Assembly: GCA_013375495.1 (NCBI GenBank)
Contig: JABXKC010000011.1
Coordinates: 25,307-89,306 of the forward strand
DNA length: 64,000 nucleotides
From: Promethearchaeota archaeon
Lineage (GTDB): Archaea; Asgardarchaeota; Lokiarchaeia; Sigynarchaeales; SOKP01
Reading direction: 5' to 3'
The notes below the pieces were generated by a model. That model was not told the DNA's origin. It made no database searches and was given only the letters and a program-made list of their open reading frames with translations. Shown here in pieces: positions 2,058 to 60,722 of this stretch. Position 1 is the stretch's first letter, and every line of letters starts with the position of its first letter. Both the position numbers and the translations under genes were made by a program.

Positions 2058-3167
2058 ATTCTTATAGATTTATTTTCAGGAGCAGGCGGGTTATCTCACG
2101 GGTTTGTATTGGCAGATTTTAAGATAAATTTAGCGATTGAGTTAGAAAAAAACTATTTTGAGGCCTATAACTATAATCACCCTGAAAGTTTAAACCTTAA
2201 TGAAGATATTACAAAATTGGATTGCGGCGAGATGGACGATACCCATATTAAAGGGAAAGAAGTTAAAGGAATAATTGGAGGGCCTCCGTGTATCGGATTT
2301 TCGTCAGTAGGGAACAGGAGACCAGACGATCCCCGTAATATGCTCGTTTTCTTCTTTATAAAATGGGTAGAATATTTTAAACCTACCTTTTTTGTTATGG
2401 AAAATGTTAAAGGCATACTGACCATGAGTAAAGGACAAGTAGTAGAAAAAATAAAAGAAATGTATCACGATATCGGTTATAACTGCAAAATGCAAGTATT
2501 ACTCGCAGCGGAATACGGAGTACCGCAGCTGAGGGAAAGAGTTTTTTTTATAGGAACTAAGGATGATAGCATACAAAATTTAAAAATTACAAAAACTAAT
2601 CAGAAAGAAGAGAAGCAAAAAACCGATTGTGAAGATTCATTACCGCCATTTCTAAAAGTCAAAGACGCTTTATCAGATATTCTCGATATTACTCCTCTCA
2701 ATAAAAAAATTAGTCCTGATTTAAAGGTAGATTATGATAAACCCTCTAAAACAAATTATCAAGAGTATTTGAGAAAAAATTCTATCAAACTCTATGATCA
2801 TATAGCACCAAATCACAGCAGCGAAGTGGTTGATAGAATTTCTCATATTGAACAGGGTATGAATCACGCTTCTTTACCAAAAAAATATCAACTAAAAGGA
2901 GGATATCCAAATATATATGGCAGGCTTCATTTAAATAAACCAGCAGACACTATTACAGGTAATTGTGGTTGTGTAAGTGCCCCAGGAAGGTTCGTCCATC
3001 CTACCCAAAATAGAGCAATATCTGTTAGAGAAGCGGCTCGACTTCAATCTTTCCCTGACAATTATCGGTTTTTTGGTTCCATGAGAGATAAATATAAGCA
3101 GATTGGAAATGCGGTCCCTCCCTTAATGGCTACTGCCATTGCGAAAGCAATAAAAGATATCATGTAA
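2058..3167 (+). CDS. C5 cytosine-specific DNA methyltransferase
   Basis: All main C5-MTase motifs are visible: motif I DLFSGAGG (nt 2067-2090), motif IV GGPPCIGFS with the catalytic Cys (about residue 78), motif VI ENVKG, motif VIII QLRERVFFIG, and motifs IX-X (REAARLQSFP, QIGNAVPP). The protein would be 369 residues. Motif I lies upstream of the first TTG (2109), so that cannot be the start. No ATG, GTG or TTG lies in frame after the stop at 2007-2009. The best candidate is ATT at 2058, 7 nt after GGTGA (2046-2050), giving M-LIDLFSGAGG. A one-base deletion near 2050, which would join ATG 2044 to the frame, is the alternative. No restriction enzyme gene is adjacent, so it may be a solitary methyltransferase. 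Confidence 0.9.
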   Translation: MLIDLFSGAGGLSHGFVLADFKINLAIELEKNYFEAYNYNHPESLNLNEDITKLDCGEMDDTHIKGKEVKGIIGGPPCIGFSSVGNRRPDDPRNMLVFFFIKWVEYFKPTFFVMENVKGILTMSKGQVVEKIKEMYHDIGYNCKMQVLLAAEYGVPQLRERVFFIGTKDDSIQNLKITKTNQKEEKQKTDCEDSLPPFLKVKDALSDILDITPLNKKISPDLKVDYDKPSKTNYQEYLRKNSIKLYDHIAPNHSSEVVDRISHIEQGMNHASLPKKYQLKGGYPNIYGRLHLNKPADTITGNCGCVSAPGRFVHPTQNRAISVREAARLQSFPDNYRFFGSMRDKYKQIGNAVPPLMATAIAKAIKDIM

Positions 3168-3256
3168 TTTTGATTTTATAAAATCAAAACTTAAATGAGG
3201 TGCCACTTTTTCCCACACAAGATCGTGTGGAAACGAATGAAAGAGTGAAAAAAATC

Positions 3257-4036
3257 GTGGCTTTAAAAATAATTTCTTTTAGTGGAAAAGGAGGTGTAGG
3301 GAAATCTACATTATTGGTACTCATGCTAAAGCATTTAATAGATTCAAATAAATACGAGAACATCTTGGTTATTGACGCAGATCCCGATGCGAACATCGGA
3401 GATATCATTGGAGAAAATATCGGATTCAAACAAACGGTAGGTGGAAAAATGACAGTACTCAAGGATAAAATTCAGAGAAGACAGATACCGCTAGAAGTAT
3501 CGAAAGATCAAATCATTGAATCTGAGGTCTTTGACGCACTCATAGAATTGGATGATTTTGATCTGCTAGAAATGGGACGCGGTGAGGGAGAGGGATGCTA
3601 TTGTAGCGTCAATAATACGATTAAGCGTATCATTGATATTCTGTCGAAAAATTACGACATCGTGTTAATTGACGCTCCAGCAGGGCTGGAACACTTCGCA
3701 AGAAGGACAGGACAAGATGTTACTGACCTCATTATAGTAACAGACGCGAGTAAAATGGGATTTCACACAATGGAAAGAATCGTAGAGGTTACCAACGAAG
3801 TCAAATTGGATTTTAAAAATATCCTCGTAGTTGGAAATCGCTTTCCCGAAGACATGAAAAGCTTATTAACCGAGAGAGTCGAAAAAATTAAAGACGACAG
3901 AGTAAAATTTCTGGGTTTGCTTCCTAACGACGACGAAATTAGTAAAATGAATTTACTCGCTAAGAATTTGCTTGAAATAGCACCTGAAAATAAATTCTAC
4001 AAAAAAGCAAGGGATCTTTTTGCAGCTATAGTGTAA
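3257..4036 (+). CDS. cooC: CooC-type P-loop ATPase (nickel insertion into CO dehydrogenase)
   Basis: A MinD/ParA-like P-loop (GKGGVGKST, residues 10-18) is followed by MGRGEGEGCYCSVNN, the CooC signature with the dimer-bridging CxC (Cys114 and Cys116) that binds metal. DAPAGLEHF is the switch II-like segment. CooC proteins load nickel into carbon monoxide dehydrogenase. The frame opens earlier, at GTG 3200, but GTG 3257 puts the P-loop at the usual distance from the start and follows GAGTGA by 8 nt. No CODH/ACS gene is in the window, so the client enzyme is inferred to be elsewhere. Confidence 0.82.
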   Translation: MALKIISFSGKGGVGKSTLLVLMLKHLIDSNKYENILVIDADPDANIGDIIGENIGFKQTVGGKMTVLKDKIQRRQIPLEVSKDQIIESEVFDALIELDDFDLLEMGRGEGEGCYCSVNNTIKRIIDILSKNYDIVLIDAPAGLEHFARRTGQDVTDLIIVTDASKMGFHTMERIVEVTNEVKLDFKNILVVGNRFPEDMKSLLTERVEKIKDDRVKFLGLLPNDDEISKMNLLAKNLLEIAPENKFYKKARDLFAAIV

Positions 4037-4114
4037 TGCTTACTCAATAGAAAAAGAAACCAATTTTAAATGCAATTTTTAAATCTTCTCTAGATTTAGA
4101 ACTTCTCTTTGAAT

Positions 4115-4942
4115 TCACTCTTGACGATAAACCGGGATGATTTTAGAGGTAAATTCCTCTAAAGTGTATGGAAAATCGTCTTCGCTTGATATTTTGCCTA
4201 ATTCTAGCAAAATCTGTCTTGCAAGCAACCAAAATGCTAATCCTAACGCTTTTTTGCCCCTATTGTTAGCTGGAATTGCGAGGTCAATGCCATTGAGAAT
4301 ATCGTCAGTATCAAATAGAGCAACGACGGGAATTCGGGCTAATTTCGCTTCTCTTAAAATTACTTTATCAGCATGCGGATCAACGATGACCACTACCGAT
4401 GCATCTTTAATGTAATCGTCTATTATAGGGTTGGTCAAAGATCCCGGAATAAATCGCTCAGTAATTGCTCTACATCCTAGAACTTTGCAAAATTGTTTTA
4501 CTGGTTCTTTGCCGTATCTTCTAACTGATGATACTATTACTTTATCACTCCCTTCCTCTACATATTTACTTAGAAATTTAGCAGCAGTAAGAAGACGTTC
4601 ATCAGTTTGAGTTAAGTCAATAACATATAATCCGTAATTCGTTTGTCTATAAATAAATCTTCTAGCATCTCCAGATAACAATTTTGTTCCTATATGGATA
4701 CCACAACTTAGATATAATTGCTTCTTTTCTTCGTCCTTATCTATTAATTTATCGATATCTCCAACTTCAGTATCCATATCTTCGGTATCGAGTAAATCAA
4801 GTTCTTCTTCTAAATCTAACTCGTCTTCAAAATCCTCTTCGAATTCCTTCTCGAATTCTTTCCTTAATTCTTCTTCGGAAATAGTATCTTCTTCCTTCTT
4901 AGAATCATCAGTCGTTTCTGTTTTTTTCTTTTTTTTAGCCAA
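4115..4942 (-). CDS. rps2: 30S ribosomal protein uS2
   Basis: The 275-residue product starts at TTG (4942). Residues from about 70 onward are a full archaeal uS2 core (LYLSCGIHIGTK, DLTQTDERL, GSLTNP, ALFDTDDILNGIDLAIPANNRGKKAL). The first ~68 residues are a low-complexity extension: a lysine run followed by Glu/Asp-rich sequence. The archaeal proteins are usually about 200-230 residues long, so this extension is an addition. The gene stands alone rather than in a ribosomal operon and converges with cooC. Confidence 0.95.
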   Translation of the reverse strand: MAKKKKKTETTDDSKKEEDTISEEELRKEFEKEFEEDFEDELDLEEELDLLDTEDMDTEVGDIDKLIDKDEEKKQLYLSCGIHIGTKLLSGDARRFIYRQTNYGLYVIDLTQTDERLLTAAKFLSKYVEEGSDKVIVSSVRRYGKEPVKQFCKVLGCRAITERFIPGSLTNPIIDDYIKDASVVVIVDPHADKVILREAKLARIPVVALFDTDDILNGIDLAIPANNRGKKALGLAFWLLARQILLELGKISSEDDFPYTLEEFTSKIIPVYRQE

Positions 4943-5150
4943 GGTAGATACCCTACAATTAGAGATTTAGTTCATAAAATAATACTCTTGATAAATGATA
5001 TAAAACATCATAATTTTAATATTTTATTAAAAGAATTCTTCTAATTCTCGTAGAACTAAAGATTTAATATATCAAAACAATTAAAATTATTAATTAACTC
5101 ATATAAGATATTTCATACAAATAGCTTAACTAGAAAGAGAATATTTTAAA

Positions 5151-5636
5151 ATGGTATCCTATAGACTAGTAATTGGGATTATAGTTGGAATTATCTTTAG
5201 CTTTTTTACTGTTTACTTTTTTAATATGGAAACGATAATTCCCCAAATAAAGATTTATCTACAAACAGATATTTTAAAAGTTATAGTTTTACAAATAGGA
5301 GCGAATTTTAAATTTGATCTTATAGCCTTTTTTACAGGTAAGCTGAACATAGTCGATTTTGCCCCACAACTTCTAGCAAGTGTATTCATTGGTTTTTTGA
5401 GTGGTACCATATCTAAAGGATTGAAAAGAGGACTTATAGCTAGTTCTCTAGTGATAGTTATTGATTTTTTAATCTGGATGTTATTAAGCGTGATTTCTGG
5501 CGAGGATCTAATGACTTTATTCCAAGGAGCTCAACTTTCCGGAACAATTGGAGGAATTTTAAGTGCAATATTGGGCGCTATTATAGGGGGATCACTCGGG
5601 GGAATTATCAGCGGTCCATATGAAGAAGTCTATTAG
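5151..5636 (+). CDS. Small integral membrane protein of unknown function
   Basis: This 161-residue protein has four likely membrane segments: near residues 5-27, 85-100, 103-122 and a Gly/Ala-rich C-terminal one around 130-155. The last segment (GTIGGILSAILGAIIGGSLGGIISG) resembles glycine-zipper helices of small archaeal membrane proteins of the DUF5518 kind, but this is only a resemblance. It starts at ATG 5151. I do not recognise a function, and the neighbours do not suggest one. Confidence 0.7.
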   Translation: MVSYRLVIGIIVGIIFSFFTVYFFNMETIIPQIKIYLQTDILKVIVLQIGANFKFDLIAFFTGKLNIVDFAPQLLASVFIGFLSGTISKGLKRGLIASSLVIVIDFLIWMLLSVISGEDLMTLFQGAQLSGTIGGILSAILGAIIGGSLGGIISGPYEEVY

Positions 5637-5731
5637 ATTTATCTATCAAAATTATTTTTATTCTTTCGTTAAAAATAGATGTTAAACTGAATAACTAAAC
5701 CTTAAAGTTAATAATTAATTTCTAAAGTGTA

Positions 5732-6265
5732 ATGGCAAGAGAAGAAACTCTACCAACCAGCGATTTTGCATTTGATTTATTGAAAAAGCTAAAAGTCCCT
5801 TATAATGTAAGACGTCACTCTCTAAAAGTTGCTGAGAAGGCGTTAGTATTAGCAGAAAAAATAAGGTTAAAAGAGGTTGACATGGATTTGATTGAAATAG
5901 GGGGCTTGCTACACGATATTGGCAGATGTCAGACTCATGGGTTTAAGCATGCCTTAATTGGGGCTAAAATAATAAGAGAAAGAGGATTATCAGAACGGCT
6001 TGCCATAATCTGCGAAACTCATATCTTAGGGGGATTAGATAAAGAAGATGCAAAGCAGGTTGGGTTACCTGAGAGAGATTTTTTACCGCTTACCCTCGAA
6101 GAAAAAGTGATCTGTCTTGCGGATAAATTTATAGCTGGAACTAAAGAAGTTACCATCGAACAGAGATTTGAAAAGTGGTTTAACAAATATGGTAGAACTC
6201 AGATCCTCACTAAAGCCAAGGAGCGAATTGAAAAAATCCAAAAAGAAATTGAAGCTTTAGGTTAA
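5732..6265 (+). CDS. HD-domain phosphohydrolase, archaeal TIGR00295-like
   Basis: The 177-residue protein has the HD signature in order: His29 (RRHS), His61-Asp62 (LLHDIGR), His97 (CETHILGG) and Asp131 (LADKFIAGTKEV), the expected metal ligands. The sequence around them is that of the archaeal stand-alone HDIG family, presumed to be a metal-dependent phosphohydrolase. The natural substrate is not known. It starts at ATG 5732 after AAAGTGT. Confidence 0.85.
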   Translation: MAREETLPTSDFAFDLLKKLKVPYNVRRHSLKVAEKALVLAEKIRLKEVDMDLIEIGGLLHDIGRCQTHGFKHALIGAKIIRERGLSERLAIICETHILGGLDKEDAKQVGLPERDFLPLTLEEKVICLADKFIAGTKEVTIEQRFEKWFNKYGRTQILTKAKERIEKIQKEIEALG

Positions 6266-6343
6266 AACTCAAATAATAACATTAAGTGCAAAATTTCATT
6301 CTCCATCAAACGGTACAGGAATAATATTTGAAAAAGGGTAGCT

Positions 6344-6847
6344 TTATTGATTTAATTTCAATTTTTCTTTTAGCTGATTTAGTATTCCTCCGGATTCCAA
6401 TATTTCTTTTAGAAATTGAGGTAATTTTTTATACGGTAGTTCAAGATCTTTTGATAGATTGAATATTATCCCATTTTCAATCGAGATTTGTACCTGATCT
6501 CCGTCGGAGAATGTTGCTTCGTCCCACTCACATATGATTCCAGCAATTCCGTTGTTAATAAGATTTCGATAGTATATTCTTGAAAACGATTTAGCAATAA
6601 TGGCTTTTATTCCGAGAATTTTAAAAACATTTACGGCCTCTTCTCGAGAGCTTCCCGTCCCAAAATTGTGTCCTCCTATAATTATAGATATCCTAGCTGC
6701 TTTTTGAGCAAAATTAGGTTCTATAAACTCTAACACATGTTTGGTCATTTCATTTGGATCTCTCATTGTTAAAGTATAACTAGGTACAATATCGTCAGTG
6801 TTAATGTCATCCCCTAAAATATAAATCTCTCCTTCTATATTTTCCAT
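6344..6847 (-). CDS. leuD: Aconitase-family hydro-lyase small subunit (LeuD/HacB type)
   Basis: The protein has 167 residues, normal for stand-alone small subunits. GDDINTDDIVPS at the start and GGHNFGTGSSREEAV are diagnostic. The loop that sets substrate specificity usually reads YLVY (isopropylmalate isomerase) or YLRT (homoaconitase); here the aligned residues are TLTM, so the substrate is uncertain. The gene follows the large subunit after 2 bp on the same strand, and the two should form one heteromeric enzyme. Leucine biosynthesis is the default reading; a related 2-hydroxyacid isomerase is possible. Confidence 0.88.
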   Translation of the reverse strand: MENIEGEIYILGDDINTDDIVPSYTLTMRDPNEMTKHVLEFIEPNFAQKAARISIIIGGHNFGTGSSREEAVNVFKILGIKAIIAKSFSRIYYRNLINNGIAGIICEWDEATFSDGDQVQISIENGIIFNLSKDLELPYKKLPQFLKEILESGGILNQLKEKLKLNQ

Positions 6848-6849
6848 TA

Positions 6850-8109
6850 TTATAACACCTCCCGAGGATCAGATATTTTTCCCTTTAAGGCTGAAGCAGC
6901 CACGGTTGCGGGAGATGCCAAGAAAATCTCAGCTGAAGGATCCCCCATTCTTCCAACAAAATTTCGATTTGTGCTACTAATGCATCTTTCCTCTGGACCT
7001 AATACGCCGAGTTGGCCACCGATGCAAGCTCCACAGGTAGAATGTGTAACAACAGCTCCCGAATTCAAGAAGATTTCAATTAGACCTTCTTTCATAGCAT
7101 TCATATAAATTTCTTGTGAAGCTGGAGTAACGATTAATTTCGTTTTTGAATGTATTTTTTTACCTTTCAATATTTTTGCTGCGATGCGTAAATCTTCCAT
7201 TCTTCCGTTAGTGCAACTTCCTAAAAATGCTTGGTCAATTTCCTCCCCTTGAACTTCTTCTATCGCTGCTAGATTTCCGGGGTTTGATGGTTTAGCAATC
7301 ACGGGGGTTATATTTGATAAATCGTAATCTAACTCCTTCTCGTAATTAGCATCTTCATCAGGTTCTACAAAATTATATGGTTGATTTGTTCGATTTTTTA
7401 ACCACAATTTAAGTTTTTCATCAGGTAGGAAGGTTCCAAACTTAGCTCCTGCCTCTACAACCATATTTGCTATCGTCATCTTGGAATCTATAGATAACCA
7501 AGACGAACCCGTTCCATGGAACTCTATTGCTTTATATATTGCACCTTTAGTTGAGATTTCTCCAATCATAGTTAATATGAAATCCTTAGACATAACTCCT
7601 TTATTTAATCTACCAGTTAATTCAATCTTTATCGATTCAGGGACTCTAAACCATAAATTGCCAGTTGCAAACACAACAGAAACATCAGTTGCGCCGATAC
7701 CCGTTGATAGGCAATTAAAAGCACCATAAGTTGTTGTATGACTGTCAGAACCAACTATTAACATTCCTGGTCTTGAGAATCCTAATTCGGGCAGAACTTG
7801 ATGACAAATCCCTCTGTTAATCCCCATATTATGAACAAACTTGTATTTTTCTGCGAATTTAATACAATCTTGGTGCATTTTTGCGGCGCTAATAGTTGGA
7901 GCAGGAACCCAATGATCGAGAATAAAAAATATTTTGTTTGGATCCCAGACATAGTCTATCCCGAGTTTTTCATATTCTAAGTGAATTCTTCCTCCTAATT
8001 GTTCGTGTACCATTATTAAGTCAATTTCTGCCTCTACAAATTGGCCAGGCGAGATTTCTTCTGCATTCGAATGCGTTTTTAACATCTTTTCTGCTAGTGT
8101 ATAACTCAT
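6850..8109 (-). CDS. leuC: Aconitase-family hydro-lyase large subunit (LeuC/HacA type)
   Basis: This 419-residue protein carries the three [4Fe-4S] cysteines: Cys299 in GSCTNGR, and Cys359 and Cys362 in TCGACIGG. VGSDSHTTTYGAF and STNRNFVGRMG are also typical. It lies directly upstream of the small subunit. The enzyme isomerises a 2- or 3-hydroxy acid by dehydration and rehydration, most simply isopropylmalate. No leuA or leuB is in the window, so the pathway cannot be confirmed by context. Confidence 0.92.
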   Translation of the reverse strand: MSYTLAEKMLKTHSNAEEISPGQFVEAEIDLIMVHEQLGGRIHLEYEKLGIDYVWDPNKIFFILDHWVPAPTISAAKMHQDCIKFAEKYKFVHNMGINRGICHQVLPELGFSRPGMLIVGSDSHTTTYGAFNCLSTGIGATDVSVVFATGNLWFRVPESIKIELTGRLNKGVMSKDFILTMIGEISTKGAIYKAIEFHGTGSSWLSIDSKMTIANMVVEAGAKFGTFLPDEKLKLWLKNRTNQPYNFVEPDEDANYEKELDYDLSNITPVIAKPSNPGNLAAIEEVQGEEIDQAFLGSCTNGRMEDLRIAAKILKGKKIHSKTKLIVTPASQEIYMNAMKEGLIEIFLNSGAVVTHSTCGACIGGQLGVLGPEERCISSTNRNFVGRMGDPSAEIFLASPATVAASALKGKISDPREVL

Positions 8110-8126
8110 TCATCATCACAATTACA

Positions 8127-9398
8127 TTATTGATTTTCACATTTATTTTTATAATTTTTATCTATCAACTTCATTGTAGCTTTAAACAAGATGCAAGCGT
8201 TAAATAAAATTTTAGGATCTACTTTATCAGGAGTATCTTTGACAGTATGAGTATATAACGATGCTGCCTCATTAGTAATATCGACTGTATCGTACTTTCT
8301 TAAGCGAAAAGGAACCGTATCTGAATGTGCTCCTGTGCTTGCATGTAAATTCTTAACTTTTATATCTTTCTCCTTAGCTGCTAATAAGATATATTTATTT
8401 AAAATTGGGGAATAAATTTTACGCATTCCAATTCCATAAGACTGAATATACTCGATTTGATTATTTTTATGTTCCTTACAAGAAACCATATCAAAGTTAA
8501 TTTGAAATACCTTTCCTTTAATAAACTGATTTTCATATTCATCTACAAATATTCGTGCACCCATAGTTCCTAATTCTTCTGCAGAAAATTGACAAAACCA
8601 GATGTTAAAATAATTTAATGGATTTTCAATAAAATATGAACTTAATTCAAAAACTATAGCCATTCCTGAAGCGTTATCTAACGCTCCCGGAGATTTATTA
8701 TGAGTGTTAAGGAAAAGTAAACATATATTCGAAAAAGAGATTAAAATGATTGATATCCAACCCCCATATATCGTAAAATAGAAGGATACATCCAAATTTC
8801 CAAGAAGAATGATAAAATAAACAATATAAACTCCTATCAACATTATTCCGCTATAAAATGTAATTTTATAAAATATAACTCTCCAAAAAGTATTCATAGA
8901 TTGTGATTTAGAATCTAAATGGGCAGAAATTACTATGTTTCCCGCATCCTTCTCAGATATCTTTATAGCAGGAACTTTAGTAAAAACATTGGTTGAATTA
9001 AGAGTTTCTCCAAAAAATTCCCCCCAAAAACCCGGGATCTCTGGATGATTTATGCCTTTAACTATTAGATATACGACTATTGTTACAAAGATCACTAGCA
9101 CCATTGTTATAGCACCATGAATATATGAAAACAATAAGAGATTTAAAACTAAAACTAGATTTAATGTGAGGAGAAATTTCATTAAAGTTGTGGAATAAAA
9201 ATCTGAAAAATCAAAAGGTTGCTTCTCTATTTGATCTTTTTTAAATCCTATCTCTTCAAAAGCTTCGTAAGCTAACTTAACCGCTTTTTTTTCACCCTCA
9301 GTGCCTGCCAATCTTGGAAAACTAAAAGCGTTAACATAATTTGACAGTTTTTCTTGGTTAAAATAAGCGTCATTTAAGGTTTTGTTTCGAGATATTAT
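8127..9398 (-). CDS. Membrane-anchored M28-family metallopeptidase
   Basis: M28 zinc ligands are visible: ISAHLDSKS, PGALDNASG, FSAEELGTMGA and GAHSDTVPF. Two or more hydrophobic stretches follow the N-terminal region (around residues 75-110 and 175-235 of the 423-residue form), so it should sit in the membrane. The only TTG (9311) falls inside the conserved FPRLAGTEGEKKA segment and has no Shine-Dalgarno. The frame is open upstream and reads as protein. ATA at 9398, about 5-6 nt after a GAGGG, gives MISRNKTLNDAYFNQEKLSN... and is the most plausible start. The gene sits between tmk and leuC on one strand. Confidence 0.8.
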   Translation of the reverse strand: MISRNKTLNDAYFNQEKLSNYVNAFSFPRLAGTEGEKKAVKLAYEAFEEIGFKKDQIEKQPFDFSDFYSTTLMKFLLTLNLVLVLNLLLFSYIHGAITMVLVIFVTIVVYLIVKGINHPEIPGFWGEFFGETLNSTNVFTKVPAIKISEKDAGNIVISAHLDSKSQSMNTFWRVIFYKITFYSGIMLIGVYIVYFIILLGNLDVSFYFTIYGGWISIILISFSNICLLFLNTHNKSPGALDNASGMAIVFELSSYFIENPLNYFNIWFCQFSAEELGTMGARIFVDEYENQFIKGKVFQINFDMVSCKEHKNNQIEYIQSYGIGMRKIYSPILNKYILLAAKEKDIKVKNLHASTGAHSDTVPFRLRKYDTVDITNEAASLYTHTVKDTPDKVDPKILFNACILFKATMKLIDKNYKNKCENQ

Positions 9399-9420
9399 AT
9401 CTTCCCTCGTTAAAGGTGTT

Positions 9421-10050
9421 TTATTTTTTAATTTGAATTCCTCTTTGGTCTAATTTTTCAATAACAACTTCTTGGATCTTTGCTTGGACTATTTCGATTA
9501 TATCGTCCGTATAAATTACACAATATCCCTCATTTTTAGCACGATTGAGATACACTTGTCTTACCTTTTCTAACAATGAAGTGTCTTCAAATTTGTCCAA
9601 AACCTTATGATGTTTCCGGGCTATTGATAATTTAGGATCGATATCTAAAATAATTGTTAGATCGGGTTTACCTGCAAATTTGTTTAAATCTTTCACCCAA
9701 TCGATAGTTAATTTTTCAGATTGACTTGATTGGTATGCAATCGAAGATTCTATATACCTATCGGATATCACAATGTATCCCTCTTCTAATTTTTCTTTAA
9801 TTTCATTTTCAAAATGAATAACTCTATCAGCAGCAAATAATAAAGCGTCTGTAGAAGCGGGAATTCTATCATCTTTTAAATAAGTTCTTAATAGTTTTCC
9901 AATATCGCTATTTGAGGGTTCTTGGGTTATATAAACATTTAAACCTTTCAAGCTCAAAAAACCTGCTAATAGTTTACTATGAGTTGATGTACCTGAACCA
10001 TCTATCCCATCAAGAACAATAAAAATTGAATGTTGCATTGATTTATTCAT
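9421..10050 (-). CDS. tmk: Thymidylate kinase
   Basis: The 209-residue protein has the Tmk P-loop (FIVLDGIDGSGTSTHSKLL), the TQEPSNSDIGKLLR segment and the DR(Y) motif ISDRYIESSIAYQ. It phosphorylates dTMP to dTDP. Length is normal. It lies upstream of the M28 peptidase, whose probable N terminus begins just after the tmk stop. Confidence 0.94.
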   Translation of the reverse strand: MNKSMQHSIFIVLDGIDGSGTSTHSKLLAGFLSLKGLNVYITQEPSNSDIGKLLRTYLKDDRIPASTDALLFAADRVIHFENEIKEKLEEGYIVISDRYIESSIAYQSSQSEKLTIDWVKDLNKFAGKPDLTIILDIDPKLSIARKHHKVLDKFEDTSLLEKVRQVYLNRAKNEGYCVIYTDDIIEIVQAKIQEVVIEKLDQRGIQIKK

Positions 10051-10194
10051 TTTAAGTATTATTTATTCTTAATTAATAAGTAATTTTCTCATTTTATAAT
10101 TAAAGTGTTAGTTTCCATTTGAATAATATTTAATAAATATTTTAAAGGAGATAATTTATTTCTAAGTTGTTAAAGATAGATTTTATTGATGATC

Positions 10195-10581
10195 ATGTCA
10201 ACTAAAAATACTGTAGGCTTTTGTCCCTATTGTAAACAAAATGTGTTAATGGTCAAAGAAGCTGTAAACTGGGCTTTAGTGATAATCTTAATAATTTTTA
10301 CGGGGGGAATTGGTCTTATAGTATATGGTATCATTTATTATAACAAAGCTCCTAGCCGTTGTATTCACTGTCGTTCGCAAATTACATTAGCTTCAACCAT
10401 TAGTGCTCAATCTTCAAATCAAATTCAAACTAACACACCATTAGGGTATGAAAGTGATAACAATGCTGATGATTCTATGGTAAATAATAAAACACTACAG
10501 CAAAACTTCTGTTCATTTTGTGGTGAGCCTTTATTAAATAAAGAAGCAAAGTTTTGTGCACATTGTGGTACAAATGTGTAA
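10195..10581 (+). CDS. Zinc-ribbon membrane protein, paralogue of 11022-11399
   Basis: This ~128-residue protein begins with a CPYC...RCIHC zinc-binding pair interrupted by one membrane segment (ALVIILIIFTGGIGLIVYGI), then a linker, and ends with FCSFCGEPL...FCAHCGTNV, a second zinc ribbon. The frame opens at TTG 10186, but ATG 10195 matches the N terminus of the paralogue. The two copies share the CPxC-NVL-TxE-ALVIIL-FTxGIGLxIY-I-Y layout and the C-terminal ribbon. Function unknown; proteins of this kind are abundant in Asgard genomes. Confidence 0.75.
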   Translation: MSTKNTVGFCPYCKQNVLMVKEAVNWALVIILIIFTGGIGLIVYGIIYYNKAPSRCIHCRSQITLASTISAQSSNQIQTNTPLGYESDNNADDSMVNNKTLQQNFCSFCGEPLLNKEAKFCAHCGTNV

Positions 10582-10600
10582 TTCATTAGATCTTTAAAAA

Positions 10601-10879
10601 TTAGAAATATAACCTGCATCTTATGCTAAAAAGATCTTTCTCGTGGATAGAATAAATATTGGGGATTTTTTCTTTTCTTAAATATTTTTTTTCGGCAGAA
10701 ATTATCTCTTGTACACTAAAATAAATCCTATTATCCTTTACCCATATCTTATCAACTAGGATATTAAACATTCCAAAGTTTCCTGTGCTATATACTTGAA
10801 AGGAATTTAATTTTTCCGTTGTTGAACCCTCTAAAATAGATTCATATATTTCTAATCCAAATACATTGTTAATAACCAC
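10601..10879 (-). CDS. Hypothetical protein, 92 residues
   Basis: The only open frame between two zinc-ribbon paralogues, on the opposite strand. The product has normal composition and no recognisable motif. It begins at ATG 10879. I do not recognise it. It could be a real small gene or a fragment, since it separates two genes that look like a tandem duplication. Confidence 0.4.
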   Translation of the reverse strand: MVINNVFGLEIYESILEGSTTEKLNSFQVYSTGNFGMFNILVDKIWVKDNRIYFSVQEIISAEKKYLRKEKIPNIYSIHEKDLFSIRCRLYF

Positions 10880-11021
10880 ACGAATTTTACATTTGAAATT
10901 TCTTTTTTTCTAAATCTTTGTGTAAAAATTGGACTCCAAATTTCTTTTAATCTTTCAATATCAAGATATAATTAAGAAAAAGAAATTTTCAATTCGATTT
11001 TAATCAAGGAGGTAAAAAAAA

Positions 11022-11399
11022 ATGGTAACAAGTTATTGTCCGCAATGTAAGATGAATGTTCTTACAACAAGAGAAGATATTGATATTTGCTTGGTAATAA
11101 TTTTATGCATTTTTACTGCTGGTATAGGTTTACTTATTTATCTCGCAATCTACCACGAAAAAGAACCAAATCGATGTGTATACTGCAAAACTATTGTTCA
11201 ACCAGTCACTTACGAACAAAGGGAGACTTCTCCAGACTTCAAATCAAATCAAATAGAGGGGTACCAAGAAATAAAAACCTATGAAGAAAATAGGTCTCTT
11301 GTTGAAGAAAATTCAAATTTTTGTTCTAATTGTGGAGTACAGCTGGGTGATAGAGAAGGTTTAAAATATTGCGCATTCTGTGGTTCAAAAATTAATTAA
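11022..11399 (+). CDS. Zinc-ribbon membrane protein, paralogue of 10195-10581
   Basis: The 125-residue product has the same plan as its neighbour: an N-terminal CPQC...RCVYC zinc pair around a single membrane helix (LVIILCIFTAGIGLLIYLAI), a polar linker and a C-terminal ribbon NFCSNCGVQL...KYCAFCGSKI. ATG 11022 is preceded by a strong GGAGG. The two are probably the result of a local duplication. Function unknown. Confidence 0.78.
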   Translation: MVTSYCPQCKMNVLTTREDIDICLVIILCIFTAGIGLLIYLAIYHEKEPNRCVYCKTIVQPVTYEQRETSPDFKSNQIEGYQEIKTYEENRSLVEENSNFCSNCGVQLGDREGLKYCAFCGSKIN

Positions 11400-11407
11400 G
11401 TAAAGAT

Positions 11408-12322
11408 TTAATTTTCACTTTCTTTTTTTAAAATCTTCATAAATTCATAAAAATAATTATAAGAATTTTCAAAATGATTATCTTCTTTTGAATAATCTAA
11501 TCCCTGGGAGAATAATTCGTTAAAACCTATGATATTTTTTTCTGCGATTATTTTTTTGTATTTGTGGAGCAGACTTTCAAATAATTCCAAAATTTTAAGA
11601 AATTCTTGATTTTCCATTTGAATCTCACCAAACATTTCCATTTCTCTTTGAATAATGCTCTCAGCAAAAACTTTTTGAAGTAAAAAAGTAGTGCCCGTAA
11701 ATCTGGTTAATTCATTTAACGGTTCTTTAGTGCTCTTAAGAAGATTTAAAAAAAGAATGTTAATCATATGGGGGACACCTAAAGTAAGAGCTACTCTTTT
11801 ATCGTGAATCTCTGGTAAGGTTTCAGTAATAATTAATCCATCAGATCTAAATAATTCCAAGAGTTCACTTATAACTACTTCGTATCGGTCGGTTCCTCCT
11901 ACTTTTAATACCATCATTACATAATTTTTCATATCACTGATTCCTGGACCAAACATGGGATGGAGCGAAATACAATTTACAGGAAATTTATTCTTTATCT
12001 CAGTTAAAGCATTAAAAACGGCACATTTCAAAGATGTGACATCAAAAATTAATGCATTCTTCTTTAAAAAAGGTCCAACTTTTCTAATCATATCAGGAGT
12101 AGAGTTTATTGGAATTGATATCATAACGATATCAGCATTTCTAACACTTTTTTCAAGTGAAAGATCGAATTTTACATTCAATTCTGTGGCAGCTTTTCTT
12201 AATTTATGTTCGTTTCGAGCGTAAAATGTTACAACAAACCCATGTTCTTGAAAATATTTTCCAAAAACTTTACCCATACCACCAGAGCCACCAATAATTG
12301 TAATACTTTTTCCTAATGTCAT
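11408..12322 (-). CDS. tyrA: Prephenate dehydrogenase family protein (TyrA)
   Basis: The 304-residue protein starts with a Rossmann motif (ITIIGGSGGMGKVFGKYF), then DIVMISIPINSTPDMI, LIFDVTSLK and SLHPMFGPG, all typical of TyrA. It would oxidise prephenate or arogenate on the way to tyrosine. Its start overlaps the aroE stop by 4 bp, so the two are translated from one message. The length fits a dehydrogenase without a chorismate mutase domain, although the C-terminal ~60 residues are helical and unassigned. Confidence 0.88.
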   Translation of the reverse strand: MTLGKSITIIGGSGGMGKVFGKYFQEHGFVVTFYARNEHKLRKAATELNVKFDLSLEKSVRNADIVMISIPINSTPDMIRKVGPFLKKNALIFDVTSLKCAVFNALTEIKNKFPVNCISLHPMFGPGISDMKNYVMMVLKVGGTDRYEVVISELLELFRSDGLIITETLPEIHDKRVALTLGVPHMINILFLNLLKSTKEPLNELTRFTGTTFLLQKVFAESIIQREMEMFGEIQMENQEFLKILELFESLLHKYKKIIAEKNIIGFNELFSQGLDYSKEDNHFENSYNYFYEFMKILKKESEN

Positions 12323-13188
12323 TTTTTTCCCAATATTTCAATAATTTTCTCTTTCATTAAATTTATATTTGGTTTTTTATCTGTCCACCATTCAAATGCT
12401 AACGCCCCCTGATTAATAAACATATCAATCCCATTCAAAGTTCTGCACCCAATTTCACTAGCATCTTTTAAAAATTGAGTTTTGAGAGGATTGTATATGA
12501 TATCATATACAAATAAATGTTCCATTAATATTTCCTTAGATAATGGTGTTTTTTTTACATCTGGATACATACCAATAGGAGTTGTATTAATCAATATATC
12601 TACATCATTTGTCAAGCTCTTCAGCGTTTCTTTACTCAAATCTTTTCCTGTGGCTGTAATCTTCATTTTATCTTTTAAATCTTTTGCCAATTCAATAGCT
12701 CGCTTCTTTGTCCTATTACAAATAAATATCTCGTCTATTTCATCGGACAACGCAAAGCTAATCGCTCTAGCAGCCCCTCCTGCCCCTAGAATTACTACTT
12801 TCTTACCTTTAATATTATATCCCGCATCGATTAAGGCTTTTTTAGCCCCAAATGCGTCTGTGTTTTTTCCTATTAAAATTCCGTTTAAATTTTTAACAGT
12901 ATTAACAGCACCAATGTTTTCAGCAAGAGGATCGATTTGATCTAAATATTGCATAATCGTTTCTTTGTGTGGAATGGTGACATTTATCCCTTTCATATCA
13001 TGCTTCTTAAATCCTAACATTGCTTTTTCAAGGTCCTCTGGTGGAACATCAAAGGCTAAGTAAATGTAATCTAGAGATAACTCTTTAAGTGCAGCATTAT
13101 GCATTACTGGGCTCATGCTATGTTCGATTGGATGACCAATTACACACAGAACCTTAATCCCAGCTTTTATTTGCGGATTATTCAGCAT
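12319..13188 (-). CDS. aroE: Shikimate dehydrogenase
   Basis: All AroE landmarks are present in 289 residues: IGHPIEHSMSPVMHNAA (shikimate-binding SxS), GINVTIPHKE with the catalytic Lys, GAVNTV, GKNTDAFG with the catalytic Asp, and the NADP Rossmann motif GAGGAARAI. It reduces 3-dehydroshikimate to shikimate. It heads a two-gene unit with tyrA; shikimate kinase and aroD lie elsewhere in the window. Confidence 0.95.
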   Translation of the reverse strand: MLNNPQIKAGIKVLCVIGHPIEHSMSPVMHNAALKELSLDYIYLAFDVPPEDLEKAMLGFKKHDMKGINVTIPHKETIMQYLDQIDPLAENIGAVNTVKNLNGILIGKNTDAFGAKKALIDAGYNIKGKKVVILGAGGAARAISFALSDEIDEIFICNRTKKRAIELAKDLKDKMKITATGKDLSKETLKSLTNDVDILINTTPIGMYPDVKKTPLSKEILMEHLFVYDIIYNPLKTQFLKDASEIGCRTLNGIDMFINQGALAFEWWTDKKPNINLMKEKIIEILGKK

Positions 13189-13296
13189 GCTTTTACAATA
13201 ATTATTAAATTTGAAACTATTAATATGTTTAAGAATTAGATTAATTTATAATTATTTAGCTATAAGCAGAAAACACATAAAAGATGATATTAAAAT

Positions 13297-13848: not shown

Positions 13849-13913
13849 CAATATAGTTTTTCTATTTTTCTAAAATTGAGCACATTACATTAAAACGATA
13901 TTGGGTCGAAAGC

Positions 13914-14441: not shown

Positions 14442-14477
14442 AAAGAAAAAAGAAAAAAATTGTTTTAATTCATTTAA

Positions 14478-16452: not shown

Positions 16453-16458
16453 AAAGAA

Positions 16459-16650: not shown

Positions 16651-16683
16651 AACAATATAAAAAAAAGAGTTGATGAAAAAAAA

Positions 16684-19210: not shown

Positions 19211-19340
19211 AAAGAGGTGGACTCAAAACTTTTTTTTATCTATATTTTTTTGTTATCAATTACAAAATAAAAACAAATAAATGAAATTATGAGGTAAGAT
19301 GTATTGTAATTACTCATTAAAGATGTAAGGTGATATTACT

Positions 19341-19997
19341 ATAAATCAAGAAATTGGACTTGATAAACTTGAAAAAAAAGCGTGGAGAACTACCTTTGAT
19401 GATGGAATCTTCGATATATACTTTGGAATTTTAATCGCAAGTTTTGGTCCTAGTACTGCTTTTACTGAAATTTTACCCTTTCCTTTAAATGTCTTGTTAG
19501 GGCCAATTATGATAGGGCTCGGTCTCGCTTTTTTTATTTTAAGCAAAAAATATCTTATTAAACCTCGTATAGGAGTGGTAAAATTTGGTCGTAAAAGAAA
19601 AGTCAGAAAGTTGAGAACAACAATAGTTTTAGCTTTTAATGTAGTGTTTTTATTAATCCTTTTTCTTTTTAATATATCAATTTTTAGAGGAAGTATAAAT
19701 ATTCCTTATAATATTGTTGTTCTTCTAGAAGGCTTACTATTTTTAACTGTTCCACTATTCCTTGTGGCTTATTTTATACAGCTTAGTCGCCTATATGTCT
19801 ATGCTCTTCTATTGGGATCTGGATTTTTTTTAGCAGATATTTCTTCAATTATCGTACCAATCCCTTTTAACTTTTTATTTACATATCTTTTATTAGGGGG
19901 GATTATTATCGTTGTAGGTATTACCTATCTTATTCGATTTATCAAAAAATATCAACTACCTCAGGAGGAGAAGAATAGCGATGGCGGAACACATTGA
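19341..19997 (+). CDS. Membrane protein, first of three tandem paralogues (ATA start proposed)
   Basis: The 218-residue product has four or five membrane helices and an N-terminal signature, LEKKAWRTTFDDGIFDIYFG, shared by the next two genes. No ATG, GTG or TTG precedes that signature in frame after the stop at 19326-19328. Starting at ATA 19341, 7 nt after AGGTGA (19328-19333), gives MNQEIGLDKLEKKAW, the same length as MNEQIDLKVLEKRAW in the third paralogue. The TTG at 19494 would remove the signature. Function unknown. Confidence 0.75.
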   Translation: MNQEIGLDKLEKKAWRTTFDDGIFDIYFGILIASFGPSTAFTEILPFPLNVLLGPIMIGLGLAFFILSKKYLIKPRIGVVKFGRKRKVRKLRTTIVLAFNVVFLLILFLFNISIFRGSINIPYNIVVLLEGLLFLTVPLFLVAYFIQLSRLYVYALLLGSGFFLADISSIIVPIPFNFLFTYLLLGGIIIVVGITYLIRFIKKYQLPQEEKNSDGGTH

Positions 19998-20643: not shown

Positions 20644-21262
20644 TTTAAAAGTATTAGAAAAAAGAGCTTGGAGATCTGCGTTTCAGGATGGTATTTGGGA
20701 CATTTATCTTGGTTTACTATTTTTAGGATTGGCGATTGCCCCTTTTGGAGATACTTTTGGTTTACCCGCAGAATTAGGGAGTATGATAATCGTAATTTGC
20801 TTTAATTCAATAGCAGTACTATTTTTAATTTTAGGTAAGAAATTTATTACTATTCCTCGAATAGGTTTTGTTAAATTTGGGGCTAAAAGAAAGAAAACGA
20901 AGAAAAGACTATTAGCATTTCTAGTTTTTAACATTCTGCTAGCTTTTGTATTTCTATCTGTAAACATTAGTGGAATTTTTGAGTTCTTAAATATAGGAGG
21001 TATTATTGAACCGTTAATTATTGGGTTATTTTTAATAACAGTTCCTCTAAGCATCTTAGCATATTTTTTAGAATTCCATCGATTGTACATATATGCAATT
21101 TTTTTCGGATTAGGTTTTTTCAATTCGGAATTACTATATCCTTTTGTAGGTTCTCCTTTAGACTTGTTTCTGAGTCTAGGGTTGGTAGGGATTGCTGTAA
21201 TTTCTATTGGTTTAGTATATCTCGTTCAGTTCCTCCGTAAATACCGCTCATCACGAAAGTAG
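20627..21262 (+). CDS. Membrane protein, third of three tandem paralogues
   Basis: A 211-residue membrane protein from GTG 20627. The N terminus MNEQIDLKVLEKRAW and the loop RIGFVKFGAKRKKTKKRLL repeat the features of the two genes before it. Its stop (TAG at 21260-21262) overlaps the AGGTGA that serves the downstream regulator. Probably the three proteins form one complex, or have diverged after duplication. Confidence 0.75.
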   Translation: MNEQIDLKVLEKRAWRSAFQDGIWDIYLGLLFLGLAIAPFGDTFGLPAELGSMIIVICFNSIAVLFLILGKKFITIPRIGFVKFGAKRKKTKKRLLAFLVFNILLAFVFLSVNISGIFEFLNIGGIIEPLIIGLFLITVPLSILAYFLEFHRLYIYAIFFGLGFFNSELLYPFVGSPLDLFLSLGLVGIAVISIGLVYLVQFLRKYRSSRK

Positions 21263-21272
21263 GTGAAATTCA

Positions 21273-21614
21273 ATCGCAAAAAAGAATGTGAAATCAGACG
21301 AATCTGAAGGAAAGATACAAGTTCTTGCAGATATTAACAAGCTTATTCACGAACCAGCTCGTTTGATGATCATTTCTCTTTTATATGTTGTTGAGAGCGC
21401 TGATTTCGTTTGGATTAAAGGGCAAACGGGATTAACTGACGGAAATTTATCTTCTCATCTTAGCAAACTTGAAAGTGTTGGCTATGTTACTGTTGAAAAA
21501 CGTATTAAAAATAAGAAAACTAACACTTTACTTAAGCTTAGTAATGGAGGTAGGAAAGCTTTTGAGGAGTATCGGATGAAATTAACACAAGTTTTAGAAA
21601 GTACAAATAAGTGA
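21273..21614 (+). CDS. Winged-helix transcriptional regulator (ArsR/HTH_27-like)
   Basis: A winged-helix domain is clear: LIHEPARLMIISLLYVVESADFVWIKGQTGLTDGNLSSHLSKLESVGYVTVEKR, then a wing and KLSNGGRKAFEEY. GTG at 21288 is an available start but has no Shine-Dalgarno. ATC 21273 lies 6 nt after AGGTGA (21261-21266) and adds AKKNV. The protein has 113 residues. As the last gene of the membrane-paralogue operon it probably regulates that operon. Confidence 0.82.
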   Translation: MAKKNVKSDESEGKIQVLADINKLIHEPARLMIISLLYVVESADFVWIKGQTGLTDGNLSSHLSKLESVGYVTVEKRIKNKKTNTLLKLSNGGRKAFEEYRMKLTQVLESTNK

Positions 21615-25867: not shown

Positions 25868-26551
25868 ATTATTGAGATTGGAGAAAAAACAATAAACCCT
25901 ACAAAGATAATATGCATTGGTACGAATTATATGGATCATATTGAAGAAACTAAGTTAGAGGTTCCAAAAGAACCGGTTCTTTTTCCAAAGACTTTAAACT
26001 GTCTTATACGCAACGGTGAAGCAATTATTTATCCAAGATGGATATTTAACAACCGTAAATATAACAGGATTGATTATGAAGTAGAATTAGCTTTCGTTAT
26101 AAAAGATAAATGCAAGTATGTAAAAGTAAATGAAGCGTACGATCATATTCTAGGCTATACTGTTTTTAATGATATAACTGCTCGTAAGATACAAATTAAA
26201 GATATTACTTCAAAATTTCCTTGGTTTCGTTCGAAATCACTTGATACTTTCGGGCCAATTGGTCCGAGAATCGTTAGTCATCTCGAAATCAATGATCCAC
26301 ACAATCTTAAAATCGAGCTAAAATTAAACGGAGAAGTTAAACAATCTTCAAATACAAAACATCTGTTATTTAAGATTCCTGAGCTTTTAGAAAATATTTC
26401 ACAATTTTTTACTATGGAACCTGGAGATATTATTGCTACGGGAACTCCTTCGGGTATAGGCCCAATTAAACCAGGAGATGTCCTAGAAGCGTCGATCGAA
26501 AAAATTGGAACCCTAACAAATAAAGTTATTTTAGAAGAGGAAGTGAGCTAA
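25868..26551 (+). CDS. Fumarylacetoacetate hydrolase family protein 1 (ATT start proposed)
   Basis: The 227-residue protein and the next gene are tandem copies. FAH-family metal-binding sequence is present (YEVELAFVI, GTPSGIG). ATG 25931 falls inside the conserved NYMDHIEET block, equivalent to NYLDHIKET in the second copy, so it cannot be the start. The upstream frame reads IIEIGEKTINPTKIICIGTN, which aligns with MVKIGKTTINPTKILCLGRN when ATT 25868 is the first codon. AGGTG lies at 25855-25859. It probably hydrolyses or decarboxylates a 2-oxo acid; the substrate is unknown. Confidence 0.82.
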   Translation: MIEIGEKTINPTKIICIGTNYMDHIEETKLEVPKEPVLFPKTLNCLIRNGEAIIYPRWIFNNRKYNRIDYEVELAFVIKDKCKYVKVNEAYDHILGYTVFNDITARKIQIKDITSKFPWFRSKSLDTFGPIGPRIVSHLEINDPHNLKIELKLNGEVKQSSNTKHLLFKIPELLENISQFFTMEPGDIIATGTPSGIGPIKPGDVLEASIEKIGTLTNKVILEEEVS

Positions 26552-59387: not shown

Positions 59388-59525
59388 AAAATCAATCTTT
59401 TTTTTTTGTTTAATTTTTTAGGAAACTTGTGCTAGGATAAATTAACCTATATATTTAAAAATTTTGAAAAATTCTGATATTAAACCAATAAAGTTGAAAA
59501 TAATATAAATTTAAATTATAAAAAT

Positions 59526-60188
59526 ATGAATTTCAATTCAGGAACATCCAAAGATTTAAGTAAGTCTCAAATTTTAACCGATAATGACACAGAGAAAATC
59601 GAAACTGAAAAAATTAATAATTCAGCGTGGTTAGATCGGAAATCTTTTCGAATTTCGCTTATTGGTACGTTTACGGCTTTAGCTATTGTTTTAGGATATT
59701 TGATGGCATATATTCCCAATCTCGAAGTTTTTACTTTGATGATCTTCCTATCGGGTTTTATTATGAGTAAAAAAGAAGGAGCTATAATTGGATTACTAAG
59801 CGCGTCTATTTTTACTTTTTTTAATCCGTTAGGACCTTCTCCACCCCCGCTTTTCATATACCAATTAATTCACTATTCCATGACAGGAGTTTTAGGTGGA
59901 CTCACTAAGAGTTTCCTATATAATAAAGAGTATTTTAAACCAAATGAAGATTTATACATATTTCGGATAATGTTGTTATTCGGATTTTTAGGAGCAGTTA
60001 TCACTTTTATATTTGATATTTTGAGCACATTATTTGGCGGTTTTACGGTTTCGATTACAATAGATTACTTTATTGCTACATATTTGTTAGGGATTGTATT
60101 TACTACCGTCCACTTAATAGGAAATATTTTAATTTTTGTATTCCTACTACCTGGATTAATTCAGCTAATAACTAAATTACTAGATTAA
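59526..60188 (+). CDS. ECF transporter S component-like membrane protein
   Basis: The 220-residue protein has a polar N-terminal extension of ~40 residues followed by six helices (SLIGTFTALAIVLGYLMAYIP, MIFLSGFIMSKKEGAIIGLLSASIF, and others), the plan of ECF S components. The substrate is not evident. The secreted DUF4430 protein next to it on the other strand may deliver the same ligand. No ATPase or T component here. Confidence 0.7.
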   Translation: MNFNSGTSKDLSKSQILTDNDTEKIETEKINNSAWLDRKSFRISLIGTFTALAIVLGYLMAYIPNLEVFTLMIFLSGFIMSKKEGAIIGLLSASIFTFFNPLGPSPPPLFIYQLIHYSMTGVLGGLTKSFLYNKEYFKPNEDLYIFRIMLLFGFLGAVITFIFDILSTLFGGFTVSITIDYFIATYLLGIVFTTVHLIGNILIFVFLLPGLIQLITKLLD

Positions 60189-60239
60189 CCCTAATGATTA
60201 TTAAATTAAGAAGTTAGTTAAAAAATTAATAAAATTTGA

Positions 60240-60722
60240 TTAGTTTGCTTCCGAAAGAAGTGTAACTTTACCACCGGCAGACTCAATTTTCTCAATAGCT
60301 CGTTTGGAGGCTTTATCAACTGTTAAATTAATTTTTTTGTGAATTACTCCACGACCTAAAATTTTTTGGATGTTAATGTCTTTTAAATTGATAGTGTAAG
60401 TATTTCCCGTCTTAGTAGCTACATTTTTTAGCGTGAGATCTTCAATCTTTGAATCTAAATCTTTTATGTTTAGAGCGTTTACATGGTAGATTCGATTAAT
60501 GTCTTGGGGTCGTTTAAAACCTCGTTTTCCGAAATCCCAATCTGGATCTGGGAATCCAAGTTCTTTTTGTTTGAGATAATAAGATTTTTTACTTTTCTTC
60601 CATTGAGTTGTTTTTCCTTTTCCAGCTCTTTGACCCGCTTTTCGGTGTTGACCTACTCTTCCGTACCCTTGCGTACGAGTTCCTCTCATTTTTCGAATTC
60701 TTTTAGGAAATTTTCGCGTAAT
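60240..60722 (-). CDS. rpl15: 50S ribosomal protein uL15 (ATT start proposed)
   Basis: The uL15 core is clear (RGTRTQGYGRVGQHRKAGQR, LNIKDLD, GGKVTLL). The ATG at 60689 would drop the conserved basic N terminus KFPKRIRK. The frame is open upstream to ATT 60722, giving MTRKFPKRIRKMRGTRT, the normal archaeal uL15 start. GGTGA (60733-60729) lies 6 nt before ATT, and an in-frame TGA just upstream excludes a longer start. No ATG, GTG or TTG is possible. The protein is 160 residues. Confidence 0.93.
   Translation of the reverse strand: MTRKFPKRIRKMRGTRTQGYGRVGQHRKAGQRAGKGKTTQWKKSKKSYYLKQKELGFPDPDWDFGKRGFKRPQDINRIYHVNALNIKDLDSKIEDLTLKNVATKTGNTYTINLKDINIQKILGRGVIHKKINLTVDKASKRAIEKIESAGGKVTLLSEAN

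What the first reader, a model, noticed from the sequence alone, without database searches (positions are those of the whole stretch)
2058..60722. Repeated AUU/AUA/AUC start codons behind strong Shine-Dalgarno sequences
Six genes in this window have no ATG, GTG or TTG in frame before conserved N-terminal sequence, yet have ATH at the right place: C5 methyltransferase (ATT 2058), M28 peptidase (ATA 9398, minus), membrane paralogue 1 (ATA 19341), winged-helix regulator (ATC 21273; a GTG 15 bases on is possible), FAH-family protein 1 (ATT 25868) and uL15 (ATT 60722, minus). Five have GGTG or AGGTGA 6-8 nt upstream. Archaea lack bacterial IF3, which discriminates against AUU, so relaxed selection of start codons is possible. 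About 8% of genes here is a high share. If real, standard gene callers truncate such genes across this lineage.
Basis: partly seen in the sequence, partly recalled or inferred. Interest (0 to 1): 0.9.

Follow-up and report, generated by a model that had tools for sequence, protein, structure and literature searches.

The report
AUU/AUA/AUC start codons in Lokiarchaea
Lokiarchaea, archaea close to the ancestry of complex cells, appear to start some genes, including those for ribosomal proteins and the very factor that polices start codons, at AUU, AUA or AUC instead of AUG, so common gene finders cut these proteins short.

Summary
In detail: all six window genes lack ATG/GTG/TTG before conserved N-terminal sequence, and orthologues place the start at an ATH codon (ATT, ATA or ATC). 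For M28 and FAH1 it is the second ATH codon (9395, 25871). Relatives have ATG at the same aligned codon (four genes) or another ATH codon. Separately assembled genomes, two recorded as chromosomes, exclude read error.

Beyond the window, uL15 starts with ATH in 11 of 49 readable Loki loci, uS8 with ATA in 10 of 41, uS14 with ATH in 18 of 39; eight of those uS14 genes have no ATG/GTG/TTG in frame. ATH starts mostly follow a strong Shine-Dalgarno sequence.

Most striking, aIF1, the factor that rejects wrong start codons, itself starts at AUU in 18 of 20 readable Loki loci, and at AUA in four distant genomes of the phylum. That mirrors bacterial infC (AUU) and eukaryotic eIF1 (poor-context AUG), both autoregulated; autoregulation here is inferred.

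The 8% share is not genome-wide: the floor in two relatives is about 2%. My open-access searches found no description of this as a system; one paper infers an ATT start for one Asgard tubulin.

The parts
2046..2050 (+). SD GGTGA of the C5 methyltransferase
   Evidence: sequence; GGTGA also before ATT in G002 and ATA in G004
2058..3167 (+). C5 cytosine methyltransferase gene, start ATT at 2058
   Evidence: PF00145; ATT in G002 with in-frame stop upstream, ATA in G004
9404..9408 (-). weak SD-like GAGGG of the M28 peptidase
   Evidence: sequence; GAGG in all five genomes compared
8127..9395 (-). M28 peptidase gene, start most likely the second ATA, 9395 (reader gave 9398)
   Evidence: PF04389; ATA at this codon in G001-G004, stop just before the ATA pair in G001
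19328..19334 (+). SD AGGTGAT of membrane paralogue 1
   Evidence: sequence
19341..19997 (+). membrane protein gene, start ATA at 19341
   Evidence: ATG at the same codon in G001, G002, G003
21261..21266 (+). SD AGGTGA of the winged-helix regulator
   Evidence: sequence; AGGTGA kept in G001, G002, G004
21273..21614 (+). winged-helix regulator gene, start ATC at 21273
   Evidence: PF13601; ATG in G002, ATA in G004, ACG in G001 at this codon
25855..25859 (+). SD AGGTG of FAH-family protein 1
   Evidence: sequence
25871..26551 (+). FAH-family gene, start most likely the second ATT, 25871 (reader gave 25868)
   Evidence: PF01557; ATG at this codon in G002-G005, ATT in G001, ATA in G007
60728..60733 (-). 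SD GGTGAT of uL15
   Evidence: sequence
60240..60722 (-). uL15 ribosomal protein gene, start ATT at 60722
   Evidence: PF00828; proteins MTRKFPK... start at this codon; ATH in 11 of 49 readable loci

Best explanation
Shown by sequence comparison: in Lokiarchaeia a minority of genes, some essential, begin at AUU, AUA or AUC (AUH). The codon usually stands a few bases behind a strong SD (AGGTGA/GGTGA), and the same position holds AUG (or GUG/UUG) in relatives. Inferred: the ordinary initiator tRNA (anticodon CAU) pairs with the first two bases of AUH, the SD-anti-SD duplex holds the mRNA so that the third-base mismatch is tolerated, and methionine is inserted. Inferred with less certainty: such starts are sensitive to aIF1, which destabilises imperfect codon-anticodon pairs. 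Because aIF1 itself starts at AUU, its synthesis would fall when aIF1 is plentiful and rise when it is scarce, a negative feedback like that of infC/IF3 in bacteria and eIF1 in eukaryotes. The other AUH genes would then be throttled or tied to aIF1 level. The confidence below is for the start codons and their SD-helped use; for the feedback I give 0.4 (the section on the most novel reading).
For: ATH replaces ATG at the same aligned codon in uL15, uS8, uS14 and four window genes. Eight of 18 ATH uS14 genes have no ATG/GTG/TTG in frame at all; they come from eight differently named MAGs. Changes between the ATH codon and the first canonical codon: uL15 W/G004 4 synonymous, 0 other; FAH1 W/G002 9 synonymous, 4 other, against 0 and 13 in the same frame upstream; MTase W/G004 6 and 3 against 1 and 12. 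SD coupling: uS14 16 of 18 ATH against 2 of 21 canonical (p = 5e-7, uncorrected for kinship); window 5 of 6 against 11 of 49. Anti-SD GGATCACCTCC at the 16S 3' end in G003 and G019. Initiator tRNA with A1-U72, GGG/CCC anticodon stem and CAU read in G023. aIF1 starts ATT in 18 of 20 readable loci; of 20 further loci 8 ATT, 1 ATC, 1 ATA; of 30 others 4 ATA. Literature: aIF1 favours discrimination against non-canonical starts in Sulfolobus, and eIF1 is autoregulated through a poor-context AUG (PMC6237735, passages).
Against: No protein, ribosome-footprint or reporter data were available. Of the 64 ORFs flagged I count 11 as ATH starts (4 in G019, 2 in G018, 5 in the window); the other 53 looked mostly like homology running a few codons too far upstream, and some had an SD before other codons (AGA/AAT in a fragmentary G019 ORF, AAA/CTG in a G018 ORF) or an SD-ATT that the orthologue does not support (G018_84, 1570). 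The SD-anchored count in the G018 sample alone was weak (ATG 7, ATA 4, TTG 4, AAA 4, ATT 3; internal control ATT 4, ATG 2, ATA 1). In memb1 and M28 changed residues equal or outnumber synonymous changes before the first canonical codon, and in MTase W/G002 and uL15 W/G005 they are equal. Canonical uL15 starts also often have a strong SD (23 of 38). M28 has only a weak SD and aIF1's (AGGTTGTGA) is imperfect, so a strong SD is not obligatory. Kinship inflates the p-values. The feedback rests on analogy.
Confidence: 0.9

Rival explanations
1. Assembly or base-calling errors turned ATG into ATH in this contig.
For: The window does hold a probable assembly fault near its end (uL6 reading frame joined to unrelated sequence at about 63866).
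Against: The same ATH codons recur in many separately assembled genomes, two of them recorded as chromosomes (L030, L033), and eight uS14 genes have no canonical start at all.
Confidence: 0.01
2. The genes really start at downstream ATG/GTG/TTG codons and the upstream conservation is not translated.
For: Gene callers use those codons. For the winged-helix gene a GTG (21288), or ATG in G001 and G002, lies only five codons on.
Against: Relatives place ATG at the ATH position; codon changes in uL15 and FAH1 favour a translated frame; uS14 has no canonical codon in 8 of 18 cases, and in 16 of the 18 ATT aIF1 genes the first lies at or beyond codon 43 of the open frame.
Confidence: 0.04
3. AUH starts work mainly by termination-reinitiation: a ribosome finishing the upstream gene restarts with relaxed codon choice, and aIF1 is not important.
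For: By ORF coordinates, uL15, winged-helix and M28 starts lie about 10-25 nt behind an upstream stop on the same strand.
Against: FAH1's upstream neighbour is on the other strand, and memb1 and MTase stand about 130 and 165 nt behind the upstream gene.
Confidence: 0.2
4. A dedicated initiator tRNA, or editing or modification, lets AUH be read as a true cognate start.
For: All three AUH codons are used in one gene family (uS14: 9 ATA, 8 ATT, 1 ATC).
Against: A pattern search allowing any base at the anticodon's first position matched in 7 of 16 genomes, each time CAT; A-to-I editing would explain AUA only. The search missed 9 of 16 genomes, so a variant tRNA is not excluded.
Confidence: 0.07

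Closest known systems
infC (IF3) AUU start codon and autoregulation in Escherichia coli
   Same: The gene of the factor that rejects imperfect start codons begins with AUU.
   Different: aIF1 belongs to the SUI1/eIF1 family, not IF3 (recalled); here the feedback is untested and ordinary genes use AUH too. infC papers seen only as titles in a reference list.
Autoregulation of eIF1 in eukaryotes through a poor-context AUG
   Same: Same factor family (SUI1), same logic of a weak start on its own gene.
   Different: Eukaryotes weaken the context and keep AUG; Lokiarchaea change the codon and use an SD. Seen in passages of PMC6237735.
Inferred ATT start of Kariarchaeaceae atubA (PMC13394414, 2026)
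   Same: An Asgard gene with an ATT start behind a likely ribosome-binding site, missed by annotation. Another group also used a start other than the annotated one for a Heimdallarchaeales tubulin (PMC13371889, passage; codon not named there).
   Different: One gene in one genome, inferred for cloning; no family-wide or lineage-wide claim in the passages seen.
Alternative starts of NCBI table 11 (ATT, ATC, ATA)
   Same: The codons are allowed starts (recalled); NCBI's aIF1 entries use one.
   Different: Normally rare and scattered (recalled); here conserved at fixed positions in essential genes of one lineage.

Membership tests
Near-cognate (AUH) start codons with SD | AUH at the aligned start position, no canonical start usable | tested here: met
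Near-cognate (AUH) start codons with SD | SD complementary to the organism's own 16S 3' end at fitting spacing | tested here: met
   weak for M28, imperfect for aIF1; 16S found in 2 of 5 genomes searched
Near-cognate (AUH) start codons with SD | protein made from that codon with N-terminal methionine | not testable with these tools
   needs peptides
Fidelity-factor autoregulation (infC / eIF1 kind) | gene of the fidelity factor has a conserved suboptimal start | tested here: met
   AUU (rarely AUC, AUA) in Loki-type loci and AUA in four other genomes of the phylum; GUG or AUG in many other Asgard loci
Fidelity-factor autoregulation (infC / eIF1 kind) | the factor discriminates against that start | not tested
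   reported for Sulfolobus aIF1 and non-canonical starts in general (PMC6237735 passage); not shown for Loki
Fidelity-factor autoregulation (infC / eIF1 kind) | own synthesis falls as the factor rises | not testable with these tools
   needs experiment

The most novel reading that the evidence does not exclude
Lokiarchaeia run an aIF1-governed start-codon circuit: aIF1, kin of eIF1, limits its own synthesis through an AUU start. A set of AUH genes, including uS14, uL15 and uS8, forms a regulon whose translation follows aIF1 level. If so, control of the fidelity factor by a weak start codon arose in bacteria, archaea and eukaryotes alike, or the archaeal and eukaryotic versions share a root.
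Probability: 0.4. Interest if true: 0.92.

Novelty: new variant of a known kind. Interest (0 to 1): 0.83.

Why it matters
It makes start-codon selection in the archaea closest to eukaryotes directly testable: cultured Lokiarchaea exist (recalled). Small essential proteins such as uS14 can be missed altogether, and aIF1, uL15 and others truncated, by callers limited to ATG/GTG/TTG, which affects completeness estimates, phylogenies and cloned constructs. An AUU start on aIF1 would be the archaeal counterpart of a textbook bacterial feedback.

Tried and rejected
SD-anchored counts without orthologues: strong SDs are too rare here for power in one genome. tRNA search: ARAGORN found none in the window and a tRNA in only 2 of 7 tRNAi loci (two others, read by eye, carry extra sequence). 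Loss of KsgA/Dim1, which goes with more non-AUG initiation elsewhere (PMC7897474, passages): rejected, strong matches in 28 of 30 genomes, weak only in G001 and G072. Loss of aIF1: rejected. Plasmid search of part of the rp operon: no match. Patterns that were too narrow: searches (20 of 53 loci unread; nothing read; 29 of 31 unread), uS8 (2 loci only); replaced. A CTG start (G018 reductase-like gene, ATG in L158) and the ACG of the G001 winged-helix gene show that codons other than ATH are not ruled out. Tree count for uS8 (3 changes) treated the window as canonical although its uS8 lies outside; by eye it is 2. uL15 labels for the tree were set by hand and count L036 as ATT.
Full report
Window and observation. 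The window ends in a Lokiarchaeal ribosomal operon; several of its nearest uL15 hits are named Candidatus Lokiarchaeota or Promethearchaeota, and the tree puts it beside L001, a Lokiarchaeota MAG. No genome is held for it. One search confirms each of the six ATH sites and the absence of ATG, GTG or TTG upstream in frame.

Orthologues of the six genes. I located two parts of the window (1-18000 and 18000-36700) in six relatives (G001-G005, G007) by DNA search, fetched matching stretches and aligned starts. memb1 ATA is ATG in three genomes. The winged-helix ATC is ATG, ATA or ACG. The methyltransferase ATT is ATT or ATA in two genomes; a third, more distant copy has ATG upstream. FAH1 is fixed to the second ATT (25871) by ATG in four genomes. 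M28 is fixed to the second ATA (9395) by ATA in four genomes and a stop just before the pair in G001. uL15 ATT is ATT or ATA in G001-G004, while G005 and G007 have ATG one codon on. Among the other window ORFs compared, those with odd columns had a canonical codon nearby or were doubtful ORFs, as I read them. Codon changes downstream of the ATH codon favour a translated frame in FAH1 and in uL15 against G002-G004, less clearly in MTase; in memb1 and M28 changed residues equal or outnumber synonymous ones (memb1 W/G001 17 and 5), so there the case rests on the aligned codons.

Ribosomal proteins across Lokiarchaeia. One scan gave 52 loci. uL15: 53 loci with the window, 49 readable, 38 canonical (35 ATG, 2 GTG, 1 TTG) and 11 ATH (10 ATT, 1 ATA); in L036 an ATT stands at the same place but a GTG lies in frame close upstream, so the script counted it canonical. 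All 11 have an SD of 5-7 bases at register spacing 5. uS8: 46 aligned, 10 ATA, 31 canonical (23 ATG, 8 TTG), 5 not alignable at the start. uS14: 39 readable, 18 ATH (9 ATA, 8 ATT, 1 ATC) and 21 canonical; 8 of the 18 have no canonical codon in frame, 9 have the first at codon 22 or 28 of 49, and one (L028) has an ATG two codons upstream and is ambiguous. On a 50-row tree of 11 other ribosomal proteins the ATH/canonical state changed at least twice for uS14 and four times for uL15, so ATH starts were gained or lost repeatedly and also kept for long.

Coupling to SD. Strong SDs are rare in these genomes (two reviews also say so for Lokiarchaea, PMC7531240 and PMC12993045, passages). ATH starts carry them more often than canonical starts: uS14 16 of 18 against 2 of 21, window 5 of 6 against 11 of 49. 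For uL15 the canonical group also often has one (23 of 38), so the contrast is not universal. The 16S 3' end reads GGATCACCTCC in the two genomes where it was found, of five searched.

aIF1. The screen of 380 ORFs with an informative homologue (192 G019, 121 G018, 67 window) flagged 64. I count 11 as ATH starts: uL15, aIF1 and two ATA/ATG pairs with G018 in G019; an ATT/ATT and an ATA/ATA pair with G001 in the G018 sample; and five window genes. The aIF1 case proved general. In the 21 loci, one start is withheld, and of the 20 readable 18 start ATT-AAA-GA.. or a close variant shortly behind an in-frame stop; in 16 of these 18 the first canonical codon lies at or beyond codon 43 of the open frame. 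L067 has no canonical codon before codon 52 but its exact start is open, and L053, a second copy, is ambiguous. Of 20 further loci (genomes unnamed) eight are ATT, L304 is ATC and L302 ATA; L301, L303 and L309 have a GTG four codons upstream and are ambiguous; L314 may use TTG; L315-L317 ATG; L318-L319 GTG; L320 probably ATG. Of 30 other loci of the phylum four (L271, L276, L278, L280) have ATA behind AGGAGG and no canonical codon before the zinc motif, two could not be read, and the rest have a canonical codon in a fitting place, mostly GTG or ATG. The SD of Loki aIF1 is AGGTTGTGA, imperfect and further away, as if kept weak.

Outside the clade. Of 70 uS14 loci of the phylum, 54 could be read; 18 of them have no canonical codon upstream, all with the residue before PQ coded ATH, and the other 36 have one (several are genomes already counted above). 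So ATH in uS14 belongs to some Lokiarchaeia; G013 and its kin form a second case.

Databases. uL15: 58 of the 120 listed hits are 149 aa, the internal-ATG length. uS14: only 18 hits. aIF1: of 120 listed, 11 begin MKD(D/E) or the like, 23 at ..SADEQ, 16 at MVTV or the like, and at least 16 begin MW.., which fits the TTG-TGA before the start read with TGA as tryptophan (my inference). NCBI names the protein YciH.

Machinery. aIF1 in 20 of 23 genomes and 199 of 227 of the phylum; KsgA/Dim1 present; an ordinary CAU initiator tRNA in G023 and, with extra sequence, in G004 and G006. Nothing found points to lost fidelity.

Literature. Searches of the held open-access library listed no paper that I recognised as describing ATH starts as a feature of Asgard archaea or an AUU start on aIF1. 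I looked at passages of 13 papers; most others in the listings I saw as titles and abstract beginnings only. PMC13394414 (passages) infers an ATT start for one Kariarchaeaceae tubulin. PMC5397173 (one passage) only lists AUA/AUU/AUC among annotated starts. PMC8410842 (passages) raises doubt about an annotated Heimdall start, but towards a downstream ATG. infC autoregulation is recalled and seen here as titles in a reference list. Subscription literature and preprints were not searched.

Verdict. The codons are start codons (confidence 0.9, higher for uS14 and aIF1 alone). How they are decoded and whether aIF1 governs them is inference.

Noticed in passing
window 63866-64000: The uL6 reading frame (minus strand) is joined at about 63866 to unrelated sequence with another open frame; L001 continues uL6 there. 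Probable assembly fault or rearrangement.
   Followed up: partly
L076, minus strand: A reductase-like gene (YDVIISGAGPAGS) of the G018 sample has CTG where L158 has ATG, a possible CTG start.
   Followed up: no
L114, L115: Initiator tRNA genes of G004 and G006 carry extra sequence after the anticodon stem, perhaps an intron outside the anticodon loop; ARAGORN misses them.
   Followed up: no
L053: G006 has a second, diverged aIF1-like copy whose start is unclear.
   Followed up: no
L054, L056-L066, L068 and others: An (A)AGGTTGTGA stands before the aIF1 start in most Loki loci, at longer spacing than the SDs of uL15 and uS14.
   Followed up: partly
protein database, aIF1 hits: At least sixteen listed aIF1 entries begin MW.., as if called with TGA read as tryptophan just upstream of the ATT start.
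   Followed up: no
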